The position numbers were made by a program, and so were the translations under genes. A stretch of DNA of 64,000 nt from Syntrophomonadaceae bacterium (GTDB lineage Bacteria > Bacillota > PH28-bin88): contig JAGXSE010000027.1 in the NCBI GenBank assembly GCA_018333865.1, positions 1 through 64,000 of the forward strand, written 5' to 3'. Below are positions 39,674 through 46,910 of the stretch, piece after piece. The notes under the pieces were generated by a model that had not been told where the DNA came from, made no database searches, and saw only the letters and a program-made list of their open reading frames with translations. Within the stretch, counting starts at the first letter, position 1. Each line of letters begins with the position of its first letter.

Positions 39674-41176
39674 TTAACTTCCTGCGGCATCTCCTGTTTT
39701 ATTCCTGCGGGATTTAAGCAACTGGCTAATTATAGGATAAAGCATGAGGATTGCCCCTCCAATCAAAAGGGTCATGGCAATGGGGCTGTCCAAGAAGATC
39801 TGCCAGCTGCCACCAGACATGATTAAGGCCCGGCGGAGTTCTTGTTCCGCCATCCCGCCAAGGACCAGGCCCAGAATAATCGGCGCCAGCGGGAACCCGT
39901 ATTTCTCCAATACATATCCAACCACCCCAAAAAACAGGGCAATCCAGACATCCATCAAATTATTGCGAATGCCGAAAACTCCTAAGATACATAGGAGCAA
40001 AATCAGCGGACCCAATACCGAATAGGGGATCTTGATAATATTGGCAAATCCCATGATAAATGGTTTGGCCATAAACAGGATCAGGAAATTCGACAGAAAC
40101 AGGCCGACGAACAAGGTATTTACCAGAAGAGGTTGCTGGAAGAAAAGCAACGGACCGGGCTGGATCCCGTGCAAGATAAAGGCTCCCAGCAAGACAGCTG
40201 TAGTTGCGCTGCCAGGAATGCCAAGGGCCAAAAGCGGGACCATCGCCCCGTTGGCGGCAGCATTATTGGCCGCTTCTGGCGCGGAAACACCTTCTTCCAA
40301 ACCTGTGCCGAATTTTTCCGGTTCTTTCGACCACCGGACTGCTTCACTGTAGCTGACCATGGCCGCGGTAGTCGCGCCAATGCCAGGTAAAATACCGATA
40401 AAGGTGCCTATTATGGAAGAGCGGGCAATTGTGCCGGTTAATCTCCTGATCATCGGCAGTTTGGGTAAGGTAGATGTGACCTTGCCCACCTTCTCCCGGA
40501 CTGTCTGGTCTTGCATTACCCGCCGCAAAACCTCGGAGATGGCAAAAAGGCCGATCAAAACGGCAACCAGCTCGATTCCGCCCATCAAAACACCAATCCC
40601 AAAGGTAAACCGGGGTACCCCAGACATGGCATCGATCCCGACGGTAGCCAGCCACAATCCCAACAATCCGGCCATAAAGGCCTTGATCATATTGCGGGAT
40701 CCCAGCACAGCGACCACGCTCAAGCCGACAATCGCCAGGGCAAAATATTCCGCCGGCCCAAAGGCCAAGGCGAAACTGGCCAGGCGAGGCGCCGCGAAAA
40801 TCAGGATTAAGGTCCCAATCAAGCCGCCGAGTGCCGAGCTAAAGATAGAAATGCCCAGAGCTTCCGCAGCCTTGCCTTTTTTGGTCATTTCATACCCGTC
40901 TAAAGTAGTTGCCACAGCTTCCGGCGCACCCGGGGTGCGGAATAAAATGGCGCTGATGGACCCGGAAAAAACCGCCGCGCAATAAACAGCCGAAAGCAGG
41001 AGAAAGGCGGCATCAGGCTGTAAAAAATAGGTGATTGGTATGAGCAAGATGACCATCATCGTGCCGCTAATTCCTGGTGTTGCACCTGCCAAAAGACCGA
41101 TGAAGACCCCCCCCACCAGCATCAGAAAGTTTAGCGGCTGCAATAAATTCACTATCGCTTCCAAAACTAGGTTCAA
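39674..41176 (-). CDS. tctA: Tripartite tricarboxylate transporter, large permease TctA
   Basis: 500 residues, about 11-12 membrane segments. TctA motifs are LIGLLAGATPGISGTMMVIL near the N-terminus, RTPGAPEAVATTLDGYEMTKKG, and the second-half repeat GILPGIGATTAAMVSYSEAVR with APEAANNAAANGAMVPLLALGIPGS. It forms the channel of a secondary, binding-protein-dependent carboxylate importer with TctB and TctC. Last gene of the run starting at 46 kb, 30 bp after tctB. Confidence 0.93.
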   Translation of the reverse strand: MNLVLEAIVNLLQPLNFLMLVGGVFIGLLAGATPGISGTMMVILLIPITYFLQPDAAFLLLSAVYCAAVFSGSISAILFRTPGAPEAVATTLDGYEMTKKGKAAEALGISIFSSALGGLIGTLILIFAAPRLASFALAFGPAEYFALAIVGLSVVAVLGSRNMIKAFMAGLLGLWLATVGIDAMSGVPRFTFGIGVLMGGIELVAVLIGLFAISEVLRRVMQDQTVREKVGKVTSTLPKLPMIRRLTGTIARSSIIGTFIGILPGIGATTAAMVSYSEAVRWSKEPEKFGTGLEEGVSAPEAANNAAANGAMVPLLALGIPGSATTAVLLGAFILHGIQPGPLLFFQQPLLVNTLFVGLFLSNFLILFMAKPFIMGFANIIKIPYSVLGPLILLLCILGVFGIRNNLMDVWIALFFGVVGYVLEKYGFPLAPIILGLVLGGMAEQELRRALIMSGGSWQIFLDSPIAMTLLIGGAILMLYPIISQLLKSRRNKTGDAAGS

Positions 41177-41206: not shown

Positions 41207-41686
41207 CTAATAGAAAAAGAGACTAATAGTCCGGAATAAACCTGTTCCCCGGGGCAAAGGAATGCCTAACAAACGCGGAAATAACAGCACGCTGAACAAA
41301 GTGGAACCAAAAATAACCAAAAGCAAAGGTTTAGTCTGCCGGAATTTTAAGATCCAAAACAAGGCCCCCAAGAATAAAATGGTGGCCACTACAAAACCAA
41401 TCCACTCCATCCCGGCGACATAGGCTGCCGTACAGCCGAGAACCAACCAAAAATTGTGGGGATAGGGCTGTTTTTCTTGCAGGCTTTCGGCAGCATATTG
41501 CCGCCGGTAAATAACTGTACCAATGACCAAAAGTGCAGAAAAAACGAACATTCCGCCCATCACAATCTGAGGCCAAAATTCAGGCCCAACGGCTGTTGCT
41601 CTAGACACTGGGAACCTGCCGGCCTCAAAAAACATCCAGGCTGAGAACAGCAAAAATCCTGCTGCTATAATTAGATTCATGCTCAT
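41207..41686 (-). CDS. tctB: Tripartite tricarboxylate transporter, small permease TctB
   Basis: 159 residues with four predicted membrane helices and the TctB signature GPEFWPQIVMGGMFVFSALL after the first helix. It is the poorly conserved small membrane subunit, recognised here chiefly by this motif and its position between tctC and tctA. The start MSMNLIIAAGF has an AGGTGAGAT site upstream. The gap to tctA is 30 bp. Confidence 0.88.
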   Translation of the reverse strand: MSMNLIIAAGFLLFSAWMFFEAGRFPVSRATAVGPEFWPQIVMGGMFVFSALLVIGTVIYRRQYAAESLQEKQPYPHNFWLVLGCTAAYVAGMEWIGFVVATILFLGALFWILKFRQTKPLLLVIFGSTLFSVLLFPRLLGIPLPRGTGLFRTISLFFY

Positions 41687-41749: not shown

Positions 41750-43012
41750 TTACTTGACATGGCCAAGCTGACGCAGAACATTCCGGTAGAGTTCAATGCT
41801 CATGTTAATACTGCGCAAGAAGTCGTCGCCTCTGTGGTAACCTGGGACCAGGTCCAAGAATCTTTCCCGTTCAAAGGTTTTGTACTCTGGGTCTAGAATA
41901 GCCTGCTCGAAGGTATTCCTAAGTTTCTCCACTATTTCCGGCGGGGTACCGGCTTTAACCATTAATCCCCGCCATTGGGGAAGTGTAATGTTCCAGCCTT
42001 TTTCCGGTGCTAAAGGGATATCCGGAAAGCCCCTGATCTTTTGGCTGGCAAATGCCAATACCGGTTTGACAGTGCCGGCAGCAATCAGTCCGGCTACCGG
42101 GCCTAACTCTTCATAAAGCACATGCACATGGCCTCCGAGGAGGGCAGCATGCATATCCCCCGCCCGCTCATAAGGCACGTAAATGACTTCAATTCCGGCC
42201 GAACTGGCCCAGGCAGCTACCATCACCTCGTCGTGGGCAATCGCGCCGCTGCCGCCAACCCGCAGCGGGTTTCTCTTGGCATACTCCACCACTTCATCGA
42301 TGTTATTAAATCTTTTCGACAAGACCTGCAGCATTCCGATATCCTTCTGAATCATAGCGATCGGGATATAGCTCGCAAGGGGGTGGGGACTTCTTCCAAT
42401 CACCAAATTAATGGGAAGATCAGTGGCTGTCATCGCCCAGACCGTATACCCGTCGGCTGGCTGCCTGACAACATAGTCAGCGGCGATGGTCGCTGATCCG
42501 CCGGGCATATTCTTCACTGGCATGGGTTGCCCCAGTATTCTGCTGGCAGGTCTGGCGATTGCCCGGGCGAATACATCCGTCCCGCCGCCGGCTCCCCAGC
42601 CCACGATAATTTCAATAGGCCGTTCAGGAAACTTGATCGCTGCCGGGGCCGGGGCAGGTGCCGGAGCTGGCGCGGGCGCCGGGGTTGGCGCCGGTGCTAC
42701 GGTAATGGGTCTTGGCGCCGGGGCCGGGGTTGGTGCCGGAGCTACTGTAATGGGTCTTGGCGCCGGAGCCGGGGTTGGCGCCGGTGCGACAGTAATTGGG
42801 GTTGGCGCAGGAGTCGGCGCAGCAGGAGCCGGTGCCGGGGCCGGAGCCGGGGCAGGCGTAGGTGCCGGTGCCGGTGCCGGCGCTGGGGCAGGAGCTGGTG
42901 CTGGTGCTGGTTGTTGGGCAGCACGCTCAGCGCCACATCCGGTTAAGGCCAGACTAACCATCACGATCATGGCAATTAAAACCAGGATTAGCCGATAATT
43001 CCTTTTATGCAC
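41750..43012 (-). CDS. tctC: TctC substrate-binding lipoprotein with Pro/Ala linker
   Basis: 420 residues. A lipoprotein signal peptide ends at the lipobox LTGC (Cys26). Residues about 35-123 are an unusual Pro/Ala linker, including repeated PITVAPAPTPAPAPR units, that would hold the binding domain away from the membrane or cell wall. The binding domain (about 124-420) has FPERPIEIIVGWGAGGGTDV, VKNMPGGSATIAADYV and KRNPLRVGGSGAIAHD, typical of Bug/TctC proteins that capture dicarboxylates, tricarboxylates or other carboxylates. GTG 43012 follows AAGGAGTGAGG. The ligand is unknown; the neighbours hint at a hydroxy-acid. Confidence 0.92.
   Translation of the reverse strand: MHKRNYRLILVLIAMIVMVSLALTGCGAERAAQQPAPAPAPAPAPAPAPAPTPAPAPAPAPAPAAPTPAPTPITVAPAPTPAPAPRPITVAPAPTPAPAPRPITVAPAPTPAPAPAPAPAPAPAAIKFPERPIEIIVGWGAGGGTDVFARAIARPASRILGQPMPVKNMPGGSATIAADYVVRQPADGYTVWAMTATDLPINLVIGRSPHPLASYIPIAMIQKDIGMLQVLSKRFNNIDEVVEYAKRNPLRVGGSGAIAHDEVMVAAWASSAGIEVIYVPYERAGDMHAALLGGHVHVLYEELGPVAGLIAAGTVKPVLAFASQKIRGFPDIPLAPEKGWNITLPQWRGLMVKAGTPPEIVEKLRNTFEQAILDPEYKTFERERFLDLVPGYHRGDDFLRSINMSIELYRNVLRQLGHVK
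42696..42800. repeat. 45-bp minisatellite inside tctC
   Basis: GCTAC(G/T)GTAATGGGTCTTGG starts copies at 42696 and 42741, and a diverged copy starts at 42786: a 45-bp period encoding PITVAPAPTPAPAPR. It lies within a longer GC-rich Pro/Ala-coding stretch (about 42640-42910). Copy number is likely to vary between strains by slippage. Confidence 0.85.
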
Positions 43013-43124: not shown

Positions 43125-43745
43125 CTACTTGGCCATTTCCCTTAACAGTTCTGCAGCTCTAGCCGGGTTAACAATACCGCAATGGCATTGGGCTGCCAAT
43201 TCATAAGCGGCGGCTTCGGCTGTGATCTTTCCTGCCTGTACTTCTTTTGCCGTCTTTTTGATCAGGTTAAAGGCCACCATCCCATGGCCGCACATGGTGC
43301 TGATCTCCAGGACCTTGTTTTCCGGCAGTTTTTCTGTCTTGCCGTGAATACCAAGGGATTGGTGGATGGTATGCCGCTGAATGCCGGCCTTTTTACAGCA
43401 CTCGTCCACATGATCTAGGATGCCGGACACCACGATTGAGGGGCCTAGCTCGGCCTCGGCCAGCTCTTTTAAGACCTTGGCCACAGTCTCCTTATCTGTA
43501 AATACGGCATGGACAATGGTGTTATCCTTAAAGCCGGCACGGATGGCCTCCAGGCCAACCGCAAACTGGTTGCCTGTCCGCATATCTCCCCAGGAAAGAG
43601 GCTGATATTTGTCCACGATCTCAAAAAACTTGCCGAAAGCCGGAGCCATGCCTTTAGCATTGACGGTCTGGGCGGCAATAGAAAACACCACATAATCACC
43701 TGCCAAACTTTCCGGGGTTCCATGACGGTGCAGGGTATGGGTCAT
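43125..43745 (-). CDS. Unknown Cys/His-rich protein, module partner A
   Basis: 206 residues of a family I cannot name. It is paralogous to the protein at 44669-45298: both open MTHTLHR-x-GT-x-ESL-x-GD and share, in register, a CC pair (Cys116-Cys117), HTIHQSLG (His125, His128), GKTEKLP, MCGH (Cys152, His154) and CxCGIxN (Cys187, Cys189). Five invariant Cys and three His could bind a metal or cluster, but no known domain is matched. It lies 41 bp downstream of an Fe-S protein gene, which is itself one of a duplicated pair, and upstream of tctC. No signal peptide, so cytoplasmic. Function unknown. Confidence 0.75.
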   Translation of the reverse strand: MTHTLHRHGTPESLAGDYVVFSIAAQTVNAKGMAPAFGKFFEIVDKYQPLSWGDMRTGNQFAVGLEAIRAGFKDNTIVHAVFTDKETVAKVLKELAEAELGPSIVVSGILDHVDECCKKAGIQRHTIHQSLGIHGKTEKLPENKVLEISTMCGHGMVAFNLIKKTAKEVQAGKITAEAAAYELAAQCHCGIVNPARAAELLREMAK

Positions 43746-43786
43746 CGGCTGTCATCCTCCTTTTTGCAGATTATTGATAACATTGG

Positions 43787-44530
43787 CTAAATTTTGCACT
43801 GGCGGTAGTCTTCTCTGGCCAGCGGCCGACCCAGTCCCACATTGGTCTTCCCGTTGATCGCGGGGGCAAACCCAACTTTCCGGGCAATCGCTTCTGTTGG
43901 GACTGTATTATCGGGATCCATGCGGCAAGCCAGGTCCAGGCTGAATACCGTGTCCAGGGTGGGGGCGACATCTTTAATAGCTGTGAGGGCAGCTTCCAGT
44001 TGGTCAAGACCCAGCTCAAACTCAACAATGGCCGACAGCACTTTTTCGTCTAAAATGTCGGGCCGCATCTGGCCGGTGGCTTTGTCCAGCATCAGATGGG
44101 TTACCGGGTTATGAGGTTCAAAGTTGACACCAACTTTGGCAACTGCCATCGCTACTTTTTCTACGTCTTTAAACCTGGTTCCCGTACCAGGACGGCCAAG
44201 TTCTGCCGCCACTCCTGCTCTGCCATGCTTAAAACGGGCTGTCACCTCATTGGTTTTCATTTCCTCCGTTCCTCTGCCCGGAACGGAAGTTGTTTTGTGC
44301 GGTATCAGTGGGTTGGAGAAGGCCTGGCGCAACAGCCGCTTTTCATCCAGCTCCTGCTGGTAGAGGGCATCTGTGGGACAGATTGCCGGACGCATACAAA
44401 TGCCGCACTCAACACACTCATCAAAATCTATTTTGCAGATTCCTTCCCTGTCGTCATAGATGATGCATCCCATGGGACAGTAGGGTTGGCAAGCCTGGCA
44501 ACCAATACAGCTTTCCTTGTCAATCCGCAT
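43787..44530 (-). CDS. 2x[4Fe-4S] protein of duplicated module, copy A
   Basis: About 247 residues. The N-terminus has two ferredoxin-like clusters: C8-x2-C11-x2-C14-x3-C18, then C39-x2-C42-x2-C45-x5-C51-P. The remaining 190 residues are a domain I do not recognise, strongly conserved with copy B: GRGTEEMKTNEVTARFKHG, VAMAVAKVGV, LDTVFSL and NVGLGRPLA. AAAGGAGACAAGAA precedes ATG 44530, so the open extension to 44554 is rejected. It could pass electrons to or assemble metal on its partner; that is inference from gene order only. Confidence 0.8.
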   Translation of the reverse strand: MRIDKESCIGCQACQPYCPMGCIIYDDREGICKIDFDECVECGICMRPAICPTDALYQQELDEKRLLRQAFSNPLIPHKTTSVPGRGTEEMKTNEVTARFKHGRAGVAAELGRPGTGTRFKDVEKVAMAVAKVGVNFEPHNPVTHLMLDKATGQMRPDILDEKVLSAIVEFELGLDQLEAALTAIKDVAPTLDTVFSLDLACRMDPDNTVPTEAIARKVGFAPAINGKTNVGLGRPLAREDYRQCKI

Positions 44531-44668
44531 TTCTTGTCTCCTTTCGCGATTCAACCAAGCCTGGCTTCAGCAGAGGAAGTTAGCCTCCGCTGAAGACCAG
44601 AGCCAGTTAAAATTGAACGGCTATCGGCAAACCCTGTTCTAGTATTAATTGAAGATCAAGGGATCCAA

Positions 44669-45298
44669 CTAGCCTTTTCCTACTATCGCCTCGATGAGTT
44701 TAGCCGCTCTGTCGGTGTTGAAGATGCCGCACATGCAGGGTTTAAAGAGTTCTGCAGCAGCTTCTTTGGAGGTTTTCTTTCCTGCTTTTACTTCCTCAAT
44801 CATTTCCTTGATGAAGTTCACTGCTACCAGGGCATGACCGCACATGAGCGCAATATCCAAAATTTCACGGGGAGGAAGTTTTTCCGTTTTACCCCATCTG
44901 CCAAGAGAATGGTGCACTGTATGTTGTCGCAGACCAGCCATGGCACAGCAATCTGCTACCTCGTCAAACAAGCTGGAAACATTGACCGACATGCCCAGGT
45001 CTTCTTCTTTCAAATCTTTTAACATCTGGATCACTGATTCTTTGTTGTTAAAGGAAGCGGTCACTACCGCCCTGTCTTCAATGCTGTCCAGCATTTTTTC
45101 CAGGCTGCCGTGGTGGAAGGCGTTGCCTCTGCGGGCGTCGCCTATGGTCACGCAGCCATTCTTCAGGCACAACTCTAAAAACCTTCTTAGCTTAGGACCA
45201 GACCCCACATGGTTAATGTCTTTACTGGGCATGCAGAGCATGACAAAATCTCCCTCCAGGCTTTCCCTGGTTCCTAAGCGGTGCAGTGTATGGGTCAT
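44669..45298 (-). CDS. Unknown Cys/His-rich protein, module partner B
   Basis: 209 residues, paralogue of partner A with all its invariant positions: CC (117-118), HTVHHSLG (His126, His129), GKTEKLP, MCGH (Cys153, His155) and CMCGIFN (Cys188, Cys190). The N-terminal half differs more, with extra cysteines (Cys22, Cys44, Cys49). It starts 3 bp after the stop of the Fe-S protein copy B, implying coupled translation and probably a stable pair. No function is known to me. Confidence 0.75.
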   Translation of the reverse strand: MTHTLHRLGTRESLEGDFVMLCMPSKDINHVGSGPKLRRFLELCLKNGCVTIGDARRGNAFHHGSLEKMLDSIEDRAVVTASFNNKESVIQMLKDLKEEDLGMSVNVSSLFDEVADCCAMAGLRQHTVHHSLGRWGKTEKLPPREILDIALMCGHALVAVNFIKEMIEEVKAGKKTSKEAAAELFKPCMCGIFNTDRAAKLIEAIVGKG

Positions 45299-45301
45299 TA
45301 T

Positions 45302-46024
45302 TTAGTCCTCCTTCGCTAAGGGCCGGCCCAGGCCCACATTGTTTTTTCCGTTTGGAGATATCCAGATGCCCAGTTCTTCGATTACCTTGACGTGAGGATA
45401 AGAACCATCAGGGGCAACCCTTGAGATAATGCCGAGGCTAAAAACAGTATCAAGCTGTGGTTCAATTTCTTTTAGCCGATTGATAATGGCTGGCACTCTC
45501 TCCAGGGGGATCAAAAGCTCAATGACACCGGACAACACCCGCTCGTTTAATAGTTCGTCTTTGAATTTTCCAGTCTTGAGGTCTGACATCATGCTGGTAA
45601 TGGGGTTTAGTTTTTCAAACTCTACCCCTTCTTTGGCTACCGCCATGGCTACTTTCTCCATTTCGTACATCCTTGTGGCTATCCCGGGGCGACCTAGTTC
45701 AATTGCGATGCCTGCCCATCCGTGTTTAAAGCGGCCAGTGACGTCGTTGGTCTTCATTTCCTCTGTCCCCCGGCCAGAGATGCCAGTTTCCTCAGCAACT
45801 ACCAATTCATCGCTCATCAGGCTGCGGATGGTGCGGGGCCAGACTAGCGGCTGCTGATAGATAGCCTCGGTGGGGCAGATGCGCAAGCGCTTGCAAACCC
45901 CACACTCCACACACTCATCAAAGTCGATTTGAATACCTTCCGTGGTGTCCGTCTTGATGGCTCCCACCGGGCACCTGGTTACACAGATGCCGCAGTCAAT
46001 ACAGGTTTCTTTGCTGATCAACAT
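45302..46024 (-). CDS. 2x[4Fe-4S] protein of duplicated module, copy B
   Basis: About 240 residues, first gene of the seven-gene run. Two cluster motifs at C8/C11/C14/C18 and C38/C41/C44/C50 (counting from MLISKETC) are followed by the unrecognised domain shared with copy A: GRGTEEMKTNDVTGRFKHG, VAMAVAKEGV, LDTVFSL, NVGLGRPLAKED. The start at 46024 aligns with copy A; a GTG at 46039 in frame is the alternative, and neither has ideal ribosome-site spacing. The TTGTATACAA palindrome lies about 50 bp upstream, so regulation by the adjacent GntR protein is likely. Confidence 0.8.
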   Translation of the reverse strand: MLISKETCIDCGICVTRCPVGAIKTDTTEGIQIDFDECVECGVCKRLRICPTEAIYQQPLVWPRTIRSLMSDELVVAEETGISGRGTEEMKTNDVTGRFKHGWAGIAIELGRPGIATRMYEMEKVAMAVAKEGVEFEKLNPITSMMSDLKTGKFKDELLNERVLSGVIELLIPLERVPAIINRLKEIEPQLDTVFSLGIISRVAPDGSYPHVKVIEELGIWISPNGKNNVGLGRPLAKED

Positions 46025-46193: not shown

Positions 46194-46871
46194 TCAGCTA
46201 TTCCTCAGCATCTCGAGGAACAGTTTTCTCGCGATCGCTAAATGACTGTGCATCGTCTCTAATGCCTTATCTTGATCTCTTTCCTTGATCGCCTGCAATA
46301 ATTCTGTGTGTCCAGACAGGGATACTTCTGGCTCCAAAGAGTGCCGCATACTCACATTGCGAAAAGCTTGCAGGTAATTGCGCAAACTGGCGATGAATTC
46401 ACCCAGCCTCTTATTGCGGCTGGCTGTGATGATCTCGTTATGAAACTGGGTATTCAACTCAATTATTCGCTCAAGGTTGCCTTGCTGGTAGGCAATTTTG
46501 CTTGTCGCCACGATTTCATCCAACCGCTTAAGTTGGGCCTCTGAAATGTTTTCAATCGCCTTTTGAATCCCATAGGTTTCTAACAATACGCGCAGATCAA
46601 AAATCTCGTGAATTTCGTCGATGGAGAATTCTACAACTTTAACACCCCCACCCGCCAGCGGAGTTAATAGTCCTTCCAGTTTTAGCTGGCTGATTGCCTC
46701 CCTGATGGGGGTCCGGCTCACCCCCAACTTTTCAGCTAACTCTATCTCCCTTAAACGTTCACCTGGTTTGAAAACTCCTGCAAAAATAGCATTTTTTAGC
46801 GAGATATAAACTTGTTCAGTTAAAAGCGACCTGTTTTTTAGCTGAAAAGGGCTGTTCGTCAATCCAGACAA
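46194..46871 (-). CDS. FadR-subfamily GntR regulator (FCD domain)
   Basis: About 225 residues. The winged helix has VYISLKNAIFAGVFKPGERL and the recognition region AEKLGVSRTPIREAISQLKL; the C-terminal all-helical FCD domain, with Asp/His ligand residues in FHNEIITASRN and HTELLQAI, binds small carboxylates. It probably senses the acid taken up by the neighbouring TctABC system and controls that operon. The frame opens at TTG 46904, but that codon directly follows the 46911 palindrome and has no ribosome site; TTG 46871 has GGAGTGAA upstream and is preferred. Confidence 0.82.
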   Translation of the reverse strand: MSGLTNSPFQLKNRSLLTEQVYISLKNAIFAGVFKPGERLREIELAEKLGVSRTPIREAISQLKLEGLLTPLAGGGVKVVEFSIDEIHEIFDLRVLLETYGIQKAIENISEAQLKRLDEIVATSKIAYQQGNLERIIELNTQFHNEIITASRNKRLGEFIASLRNYLQAFRNVSMRHSLEPEVSLSGHTELLQAIKERDQDKALETMHSHLAIARKLFLEMLRNS

Positions 46872-46910
46872 AGACTTCACTCCGATCCGCAAATATGTCC
46901 ACAAGCATTA

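What the first reader, a model, noticed from the sequence alone, without database searches (positions are those of the whole stretch)
43125..46024. Duplicated module of unknown function: 2x[4Fe-4S] protein plus Cys/His-rich partner
Two diverged copies of the same gene pair lie in tandem upstream of tctCBA. Both partner proteins keep five Cys and three His in register (CC, HTxHxSLG, MCGH, CxCGIxN), and both Fe-S proteins keep a long unassigned domain (GRGTEEMKTN, VAMAVAK, LDTVFSL, NVGLGRPLA). Retention of both pairs suggests a heteromeric enzyme or two enzymes for related substrates. I recognise no known family, so this is a strong candidate for an undescribed metabolic system.
Basis: partly seen in the sequence, partly recalled or inferred. 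Interest (0 to 1): 0.75.

Follow-up and report, generated by a model that had tools for sequence, protein, structure and literature searches.

The report
Undescribed iron-sulfur gene pair beside importers
Two neighbouring bacterial genes of unknown kind, one for an iron-sulfur protein and one for a cysteine- and histidine-rich partner, travel together as a unit next to nutrient importers in many bacteria, and probably form an unrecognised enzyme that starts the breakdown of imported acids.

Summary
Two gene pairs, A (2[4Fe-4S] protein with an unassigned domain) and B (Cys/His protein), lie between a GntR/FCD regulator and tctCBA. Neither B nor A's C-terminal domain has a convincing match in Pfam, NCBIfam or PDB sequences; the predicted folds are only generic ferredoxin-like. 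The pair is an obligate unit: A and B share 24 of 398 phylum genomes, A sits directly upstream of 60 of 64 B genes, and their distances correlate (r = 0.845; within-genome partner swaps reach at most 0.607). 'CC' is not conserved; the invariant or nearly invariant set includes H3, R7, D17, N29, H126, C153, H155, C188, C190, N194, with a fixed N-terminus. TctA lies within 8 kb of 34 of 54 B genes (expected 1.4), but other copies sit with TRAP, GntP, 2HCT or (by eye) ABC/ECF importers. In one genome a 98%-identical A-B cassette serves three operons with different neighbours. Best reading: a heterodimeric Fe-S oxidoreductase acting early on imported (hydroxy)carboxylates. The reaction is unproven; confidence 0.4.

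The parts
45302..46024 (-). A, pair 1: 2[4Fe-4S] ferredoxin domain plus unassigned C-terminal domain (GRGTEEMKTN...GRP...NVGLGRPL); ORF extends to 46039
   Evidence: Fer4 PF00037 39.6 bits over cut-off 21.1; C-domain without family
44669..45298 (-). B, pair 1: Cys/His protein, MTHTLHR N-terminus, H126, MCGH, CxCG
   Evidence: no Pfam or NCBIfam match at cut-off, no PDB match
43787..44530 (-). A, pair 2 (ORF extends to 44554)
   Evidence: Fer4 34.2 bits
43125..43745 (-). B, pair 2
   Evidence: no family; nearest relative L055, 72%
41750..43012 (-). TctC solute-binding lipoprotein with a long Pro/Ala-rich linker
   Evidence: PF03401 105.8 bits; linker
41207..41686 (-). TctB
   Evidence: PF07331 73.7 bits
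39674..41176 (-). TctA
   Evidence: PF01970 505 bits at 39872-41125
46194..46904 (-). GntR/FCD regulator at the head of the run
   Evidence: PF00392 and PF07729
38087..39427 (-). CitMHS-family transporter, co-directional downstream of tctA (link to the pairs uncertain)
   Evidence: PF03600 187 bits

Best explanation
A and B form one obligate heteromeric metalloenzyme, each A specific for its own B. Shown: obligate pairing and co-divergence, eight-Cys 2[4Fe-4S] motif in A, invariant polar residues in both proteins, fixed N-terminus of B, strong linkage to tripartite tricarboxylate importers. Inferred, likely: B holds a metal or Fe-S site built from C153, H155, C188, C190 (perhaps with H126 and the N-terminal H3/H6), the active site lies at the A:B interface, and A's two clusters carry electrons between it and soluble ferredoxin or an NAD(P)H adaptor. 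Inferred, weaker: the enzyme does the first oxidation of an imported hydroxy-carboxylate (2-hydroxyacid to 2-oxoacid) or of a closely related intermediate. The two window pairs would be two such enzymes of different specificity fed by one TctCBA importer.
For: Pairing: 24 shared genomes of 398; 60 of 64 adjacent; r = 0.845 over 59 pairs; 0 of 2000 permutations and 0 of 2000 within-genome swaps reach it. Enzyme-like conservation: 13 polar residues of B (54 rows) and 11 of A's C-domain (56 rows) kept in at least 95% of rows. Redox: each of the 8 Cys of A in 56 or 57 of 57; in two separate subfamilies the pair sits with a CooF-like Fe-S protein and an NAD(P)H-flavoprotein, in four of these five loci also with a CooS-like protein. 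Substrate: TctA within 8 kb of 34 of 54, expected 1.4; 2HCT (453 bits, L079) and GntP (291 bits, L056) in other loci; in L059 a nickel-pincer isomerase and an Ldh_2 dehydrogenase in the same run. Pathway gaps: L065, L061 and L079 hold importer, A, B, 2-oxoacid:ferredoxin oxidoreductase and ADP-forming acyl-CoA synthetase in one neighbourhood, with no dehydrogenase recognised by eye; L060 has AllG- and FdrA-like genes and its genome (90% complete) shows no Ldh_2/AllD-type gene. Not tied to one transporter: a 98%-identical A-B cassette in three operons of one genome.
Against: No catalytic fold was recognised; both models match only generic ferredoxin-like folds. 2-oxoacid oxidoreductase genes are not significantly enriched near B (4 of 54 against 2.6 expected, p = 0.27; the POR list was truncated and L061's IOR was not counted), so the pathway-gap argument rests on a few loci; in L079 an opposite-strand ORF separates the pair and 2HCT from the oxidoreductase genes. 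L060 also carries an SDR dehydrogenase, L059 and L068 an Ldh_2 dehydrogenase, and the genome of L061 has an Ldh_2 gene elsewhere; any of these could do the step. Several loci have ABC/ECF importers (by eye) and peptidase- or sugar-like genes (L046, L052, L060). No flavin, haem or pterin site is evident for a hydride transfer.
Confidence: 0.4

Rival explanations
1. A-B is a non-redox Fe-S lyase, dehydratase or isomerase: B's three invariant Cys hold a [4Fe-4S] cluster with an open iron site, and A's clusters are structural or keep it reduced.
For: Exactly three invariant Cys plus invariant His in B; aconitase (L072) and IlvD-type dehydratase (L006) genes near some copies.
Against: Two ferredoxin clusters and CooF/NAD(P)H-flavoprotein neighbours suggest electron flow; known Fe-S dehydratases are already present in some of these loci.
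Confidence: 0.2
2. A-B is a redox and metabolite sensor (ACT/PII-like folds plus Fe-S) that controls uptake or expression of the operon in which it lies.
For: Fold matches to ACT-bearing aspartokinase (A, Z up to 5.7, 78 residues, 2.6 A) and PII-like CPII/SbtB (B, Z up to 6.4, 79 residues, 3.0 A); the pair often lies just after the regulator and ahead of the transporter.
Against: These Z values are in the range of a common arrangement (tool note). Regulator types (labelled partly by eye: GntR, IclR, sigma54-PAS) vary inside the one subfamily that holds pair 1, and transporter types vary between near-identical copies, so the pair follows neither.
Confidence: 0.15
3. A-B is an electron-transfer or maturation accessory for other oxidoreductases (AOR, POR, CooS-like proteins).
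For: AFOR_C within 8 kb of 8 of 54 (expected 1.8, p = 4e-4, five of the eight from one genome); CooS-like neighbours in two subfamilies.
Against: In the window and in L006 no such enzyme lies between regulator and transporter; POR proximity is not significant; the polar invariants look like more than a carrier needs.
Confidence: 0.15

Closest known systems
2[4Fe-4S] ferredoxin domains (PF00037 and kin; PorD-type subunits)
   Same: The N-terminal part of A carries two CxxCxxC...C motifs; PF00037 over cut-off
   Different: PorD/KorD model TIGR02179 below cut-off (35 and 38.7 against 60.05); A adds an unassigned domain of about 160 residues with its own invariants
Hydroxyacid dehydrogenases of the Ldh_2/AllD family; LutABC lactate oxidation (the latter recalled)
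   Same: By inference works like them: placed beside carboxylate importers and 2-oxoacid-using enzymes
   Different: No sequence relation found; an Ldh_2 gene sits in the same run as the pair in L059 and L068
PII-like / ACT regulatory domains (SbtB, CPII, aspartokinase)
   Same: Generic ferredoxin-like fold in the models
   Different: No sequence match; the fold matches do not cover the Cys/His-rich C-terminal half of B or the ferredoxin part of A
Ni-CODH / mini-CooS with CooF and FNOR (PMC8776680, passages)
   Same: Some A-B pairs lie with CooF-like, CooS-like and FAD-reductase genes
   Different: The CooS-like protein of L063 has lost Cys that CODH-II keeps; A and B show no relation to CooS and are not mentioned in the passages read

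Membership tests
2[4Fe-4S] ferredoxin domain (PF00037), protein A | Curated score reached and eight Cys | tested here: met
   39.6 and 34.2 bits against 21.1; each of eight Cys in 56 or 57 of 57
PorD/KorD delta subunit (TIGR02179) | Curated score 60.05 over the whole protein | tested here: not met
   35 and 38.7 bits, ferredoxin part only
Any Pfam family, protein B | Curated score reached | tested here: not met
   Window copies: below cut-off or nothing; 54 B proteins (both window copies included): one family at E up to 0.01, 2 of 54 members, best E 0.0056
Any NCBIfam family, protein B | Curated score reached by the family | tested here: not met
   Window copies: none at cut-off; 54 B proteins: eight unrelated families, each in 1-2 members, best E 1e-4; cut-offs of those single hits not shown
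Any Pfam or NCBIfam family, A C-terminal domain | Curated score reached by the family | tested here: not met
   56 members: one Pfam family in 1 member, E 0.0019; one NCBIfam family in 1 member, E 0.0058
Solved-structure relatives by sequence | Profile match E below 0.001 | tested here: not met
   Best E 0.052 (B, 54 rows) and 0.015 (A C-domain, 56 rows)
PII-like / ACT regulators | Fold similarity well above background | tested here: inconclusive
   Z up to 6.4 (B) and 5.7 (A), tied with unrelated folds
Ldh_2 hydroxyacid dehydrogenases (PF02615) | Curated Pfam score reached by A or B | tested here: not met
   Not among the Pfam matches of A or B
Metalloenzyme with a metal or Fe-S site in B | Bound metal in purified protein | not testable with these tools
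   Only conserved candidate ligands C153, H155, C188, C190, H126, H3, H6

The most novel reading that the evidence does not exclude
B is a new metalloenzyme family whose cofactor is anchored by the processed N-terminus: removal of the start Met would expose Thr/Ser2, and its amine with His3 (and His6) would bind a metal as in a histidine brace or Ni hook (comparison recalled), close to the C153/H155/C188/C190 site. Wired to A's 2[4Fe-4S] clusters, it would oxidise or reduce hydroxy-carboxylates without flavin, haem or pterin.
Probability: 0.18. Interest if true: 0.85.

Novelty: categorically new. Interest (0 to 1): 0.62.

Why it matters
A conserved, obligate two-protein unit, with up to nine copies in one genome (G023), placed next to nutrient importers and outside the family libraries searched here, suggests a missing enzyme class in the catabolism of imported carboxylates. 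The claim of novelty is at the level of the two protein families; the function is inferred. Solving it would give a meaning to many tctABC operons of unknown substrate and could reveal a new metal site.

Tried and rejected
Two-pair heteromer from tandem duplication: rejected by tree and co-divergence. An accessory of TctABC only: rejected, because TRAP, GntP, 2HCT and, by eye, ABC/ECF contexts exist. 2-oxoacid oxidoreductase linkage as a general rule: not significant. A and B as homologues of each other: no support (probability 0.1%). Plasmids and phages: no match for B of pair 1. Fold searches gave only generic ferredoxin-like matches; the absence of other folds there proves nothing. Weak single-member family hits agree on nothing and were taken as chance.

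Literature: searches returned no paper; searches listed 6, 3, 7 and 12 (of 32) papers, none of which by title or start of abstract is about this pair. I read passages only of PMC13056359, PMC8776680 and PMC11338639. UniProt, InterPro and COG were not searchable here, nor were most subscription journals.

Rows dropped: 3 of the 55 rows (fragments in G367 and G066) were left out and two B genes added, giving 54. In one search I gave 54 of 62 B references, 56 of 60 A references, leaving out mostly close relatives of kept rows and the truncated L080. L036 was dropped because its contig length (18,196) equals that of L044. The tree and first conservation count used 57 rows, made before L113-L117 were fetched.

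Full report
OBSERVATION. The window holds regulator (46194-46904), A, B, A, B, tctC, tctB, tctA, all on the minus strand. The two B proteins are 46% identical and the two A domains 52%. A carries eight Cys typical of 2[4Fe-4S] ferredoxins (PF00037 over cut-off) followed by about 160 residues without a family. B has no family.

FAMILY. The genome holds four B copies: the two here and two on another contig, which flank a second tctCBA in the order regulator, A, B, tctC, tctB, tctA, A, B (TctA there confirmed). In 398 genomes of the phylum, B is found in 25 and A's C-terminal domain in 25; 24 are shared. The exceptions are one B at a contig end (G002, with a cut A beside it) and one weak A hit over 53 residues (G388). 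Named relatives are Bacillota, Synergistota and Armatimonadota; of 201 genomes drawn from the last phylum, 2 have B. B of pair 1 has no match in the plasmid or phage collections.

OBLIGATE PAIR. Of 64 B hits in fetched loci, 60 have A directly upstream on the same strand (gap -4 to +83 bases). The other four: one is split by my own region boundary, one has a 402-residue minus-strand ORF (looks like an IS110 transposase, by eye) between A and B, one lies in a B-A-A-B arrangement, one is a fragment. A and B distances correlate with r = 0.845 over 59 pairs; no shuffle (0 of 2000) and no swap of partners within the 11 multi-copy genomes (0 of 2000, maximum 0.607) reaches this. Genomes with several pairs thus keep each A matched to its own B.

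NOT A LOCAL DUPLICATION. In the B tree (57 rows) the window copies sit in different subfamilies: 44669-45298 near L034, L035 and L044 (71-72%), inside a well-supported set of 17 rows; 43125-43745 near L055 (72%; that fork 92/95, no starred set). L034, L035, L044 and L055 each show one pair with Tct genes in the stretch fetched. The heteromer idea loses its basis.

ANATOMY. B: 62 of 64 hits fit the N-terminal pattern, and in all 62 the residue before Thr/Ser2 is a start codon (52 ATG, 8 GTG, 2 TTG), with Thr (56) or Ser (6) next; 60 of 62 have a Shine-Dalgarno-like word by a loose pattern. In 55 this is the first possible start codon after the upstream stop; in the 7 with an earlier possible start the codon is still ATG. 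My pattern required the letters at positions 2, 3, 5, 6 and 7 (with a few variants), so the start codon is the independent result; the two hits outside it are a truncated contig (MMHSLHR) and a fragment. In 54 aligned B rows R7, D17, S104, C153, H155, C188, C190 and N194 are invariant and H3, H6, N29, H126, R197 nearly so; in 56 A domains R5, E9, K11, N13, R32, E89, K147 are invariant (domain numbering). Models: B pLDDT 84, A 69; the low-confidence stretches include the most conserved loops, which could mean contact with a partner or metal, or only a thin alignment of 12 rows. Only ferredoxin-like matches, Z at most 6.5, which the tool rates as background.

CONTEXT. TctA lies within 8 kb of 34 of 54 B genes, expected 1.4 (p about 2e-40); AFOR_C 8 of 54, expected 1.8 (p = 4e-4; five of the eight from one genome); POR_N 4 of 54, expected 2.6 (p = 0.27; the POR list was truncated, and L061's IOR was not counted). 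The binomial test treats copies as independent, which related copies are not. Other importers beside pairs: TRAP (DctP), GntP and 2HCT, ABC/ECF types by eye. In genome G023 a block of 98% DNA identity runs from A start to B stop in two operons, and two pieces that abut at my region boundary (99.4 and 98.3%) show a third copy; the neighbours are TRAP/AOR, GntP, and FAH/Zn-ADH genes downstream of a tct set. The unit moves or is homogenised as a cassette, independent of the transporter. Within the subfamily of pair 1 the regulator type varies (labels partly by eye) while Tct mostly stays.

PATHWAY HINTS. L065: TctCBA, A, B, 2-oxoacid oxidoreductase alpha and beta, ADP-forming acyl-CoA synthetase; L061: pairs, TctCBA, synthetase, IOR; L079: A, B, 2HCT, then, beyond an opposite-strand ORF, oxoacid oxidoreductase and synthetase genes. 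L059 has Ldh_2 and a nickel-pincer isomerase. L060 has AllG- and FdrA-like genes. Of eight genomes searched for Ldh_2, G305 (L060), G217 (L065) and G158 (L079) have none, while G000, G280 (L061), G192, G187 and G080 do. Five loci in two subfamilies have CooF-like and NAD(P)H-flavoprotein genes. These favour a redox step from hydroxy- to oxo-acid but are few, and L060 also has an SDR.

VERDICT. The pair is a real, recurrent, obligate unit of two unassigned protein families. The most likely function is a heterodimeric Fe-S oxidoreductase for imported (hydroxy)carboxylates (0.4). Pairing and context are shown here; metal site, reaction and substrate are inferred.

Noticed in passing
window 41750-43012; L006 8337-9662: Both TctC lipoproteins seen in this genome's A-B loci carry a linker of roughly 100 residues of Pro-Ala-rich repeats between the N-terminal lipobox-like segment and the binding domain.
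   Followed up: no
L063 7198-8715; L064 7411-8976; L077 11744-13015; L078 7555-8823: Short CooS-like proteins (422-521 residues) beside A-B. L063 aligns to CODH-II with D-cluster Cys and some C-cluster Cys replaced (ligand roles recalled); L077/L078 keep more Cys by eye. Mini-CooS is known in print with complete motifs (PMC8776680 passages).
   Followed up: partly
L045 4551-5889, L045 19319-20000 with L046 1-652, L056 8930-10268: 98%-identical A-B cassette in three operons of one genome; the matches run from A start to B stop and do not extend into the flanks searched.
   Followed up: partly
L041 6516-7724: A minus-strand 402-residue ORF resembling an IS110 transposase separates A and B in Oscillibacter sp. 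PC13 (identification by eye).
   Followed up: no
L006 3164-3985 and 4017-5714: LarB (nickel-pincer cofactor) and IlvD-type dehydratase genes beside the genome's other A-B/tct locus.
   Followed up: no
L037 6088-6777: A second, 3'-altered copy of A upstream of the intact pair; a duplication or an assembly artefact.
   Followed up: no
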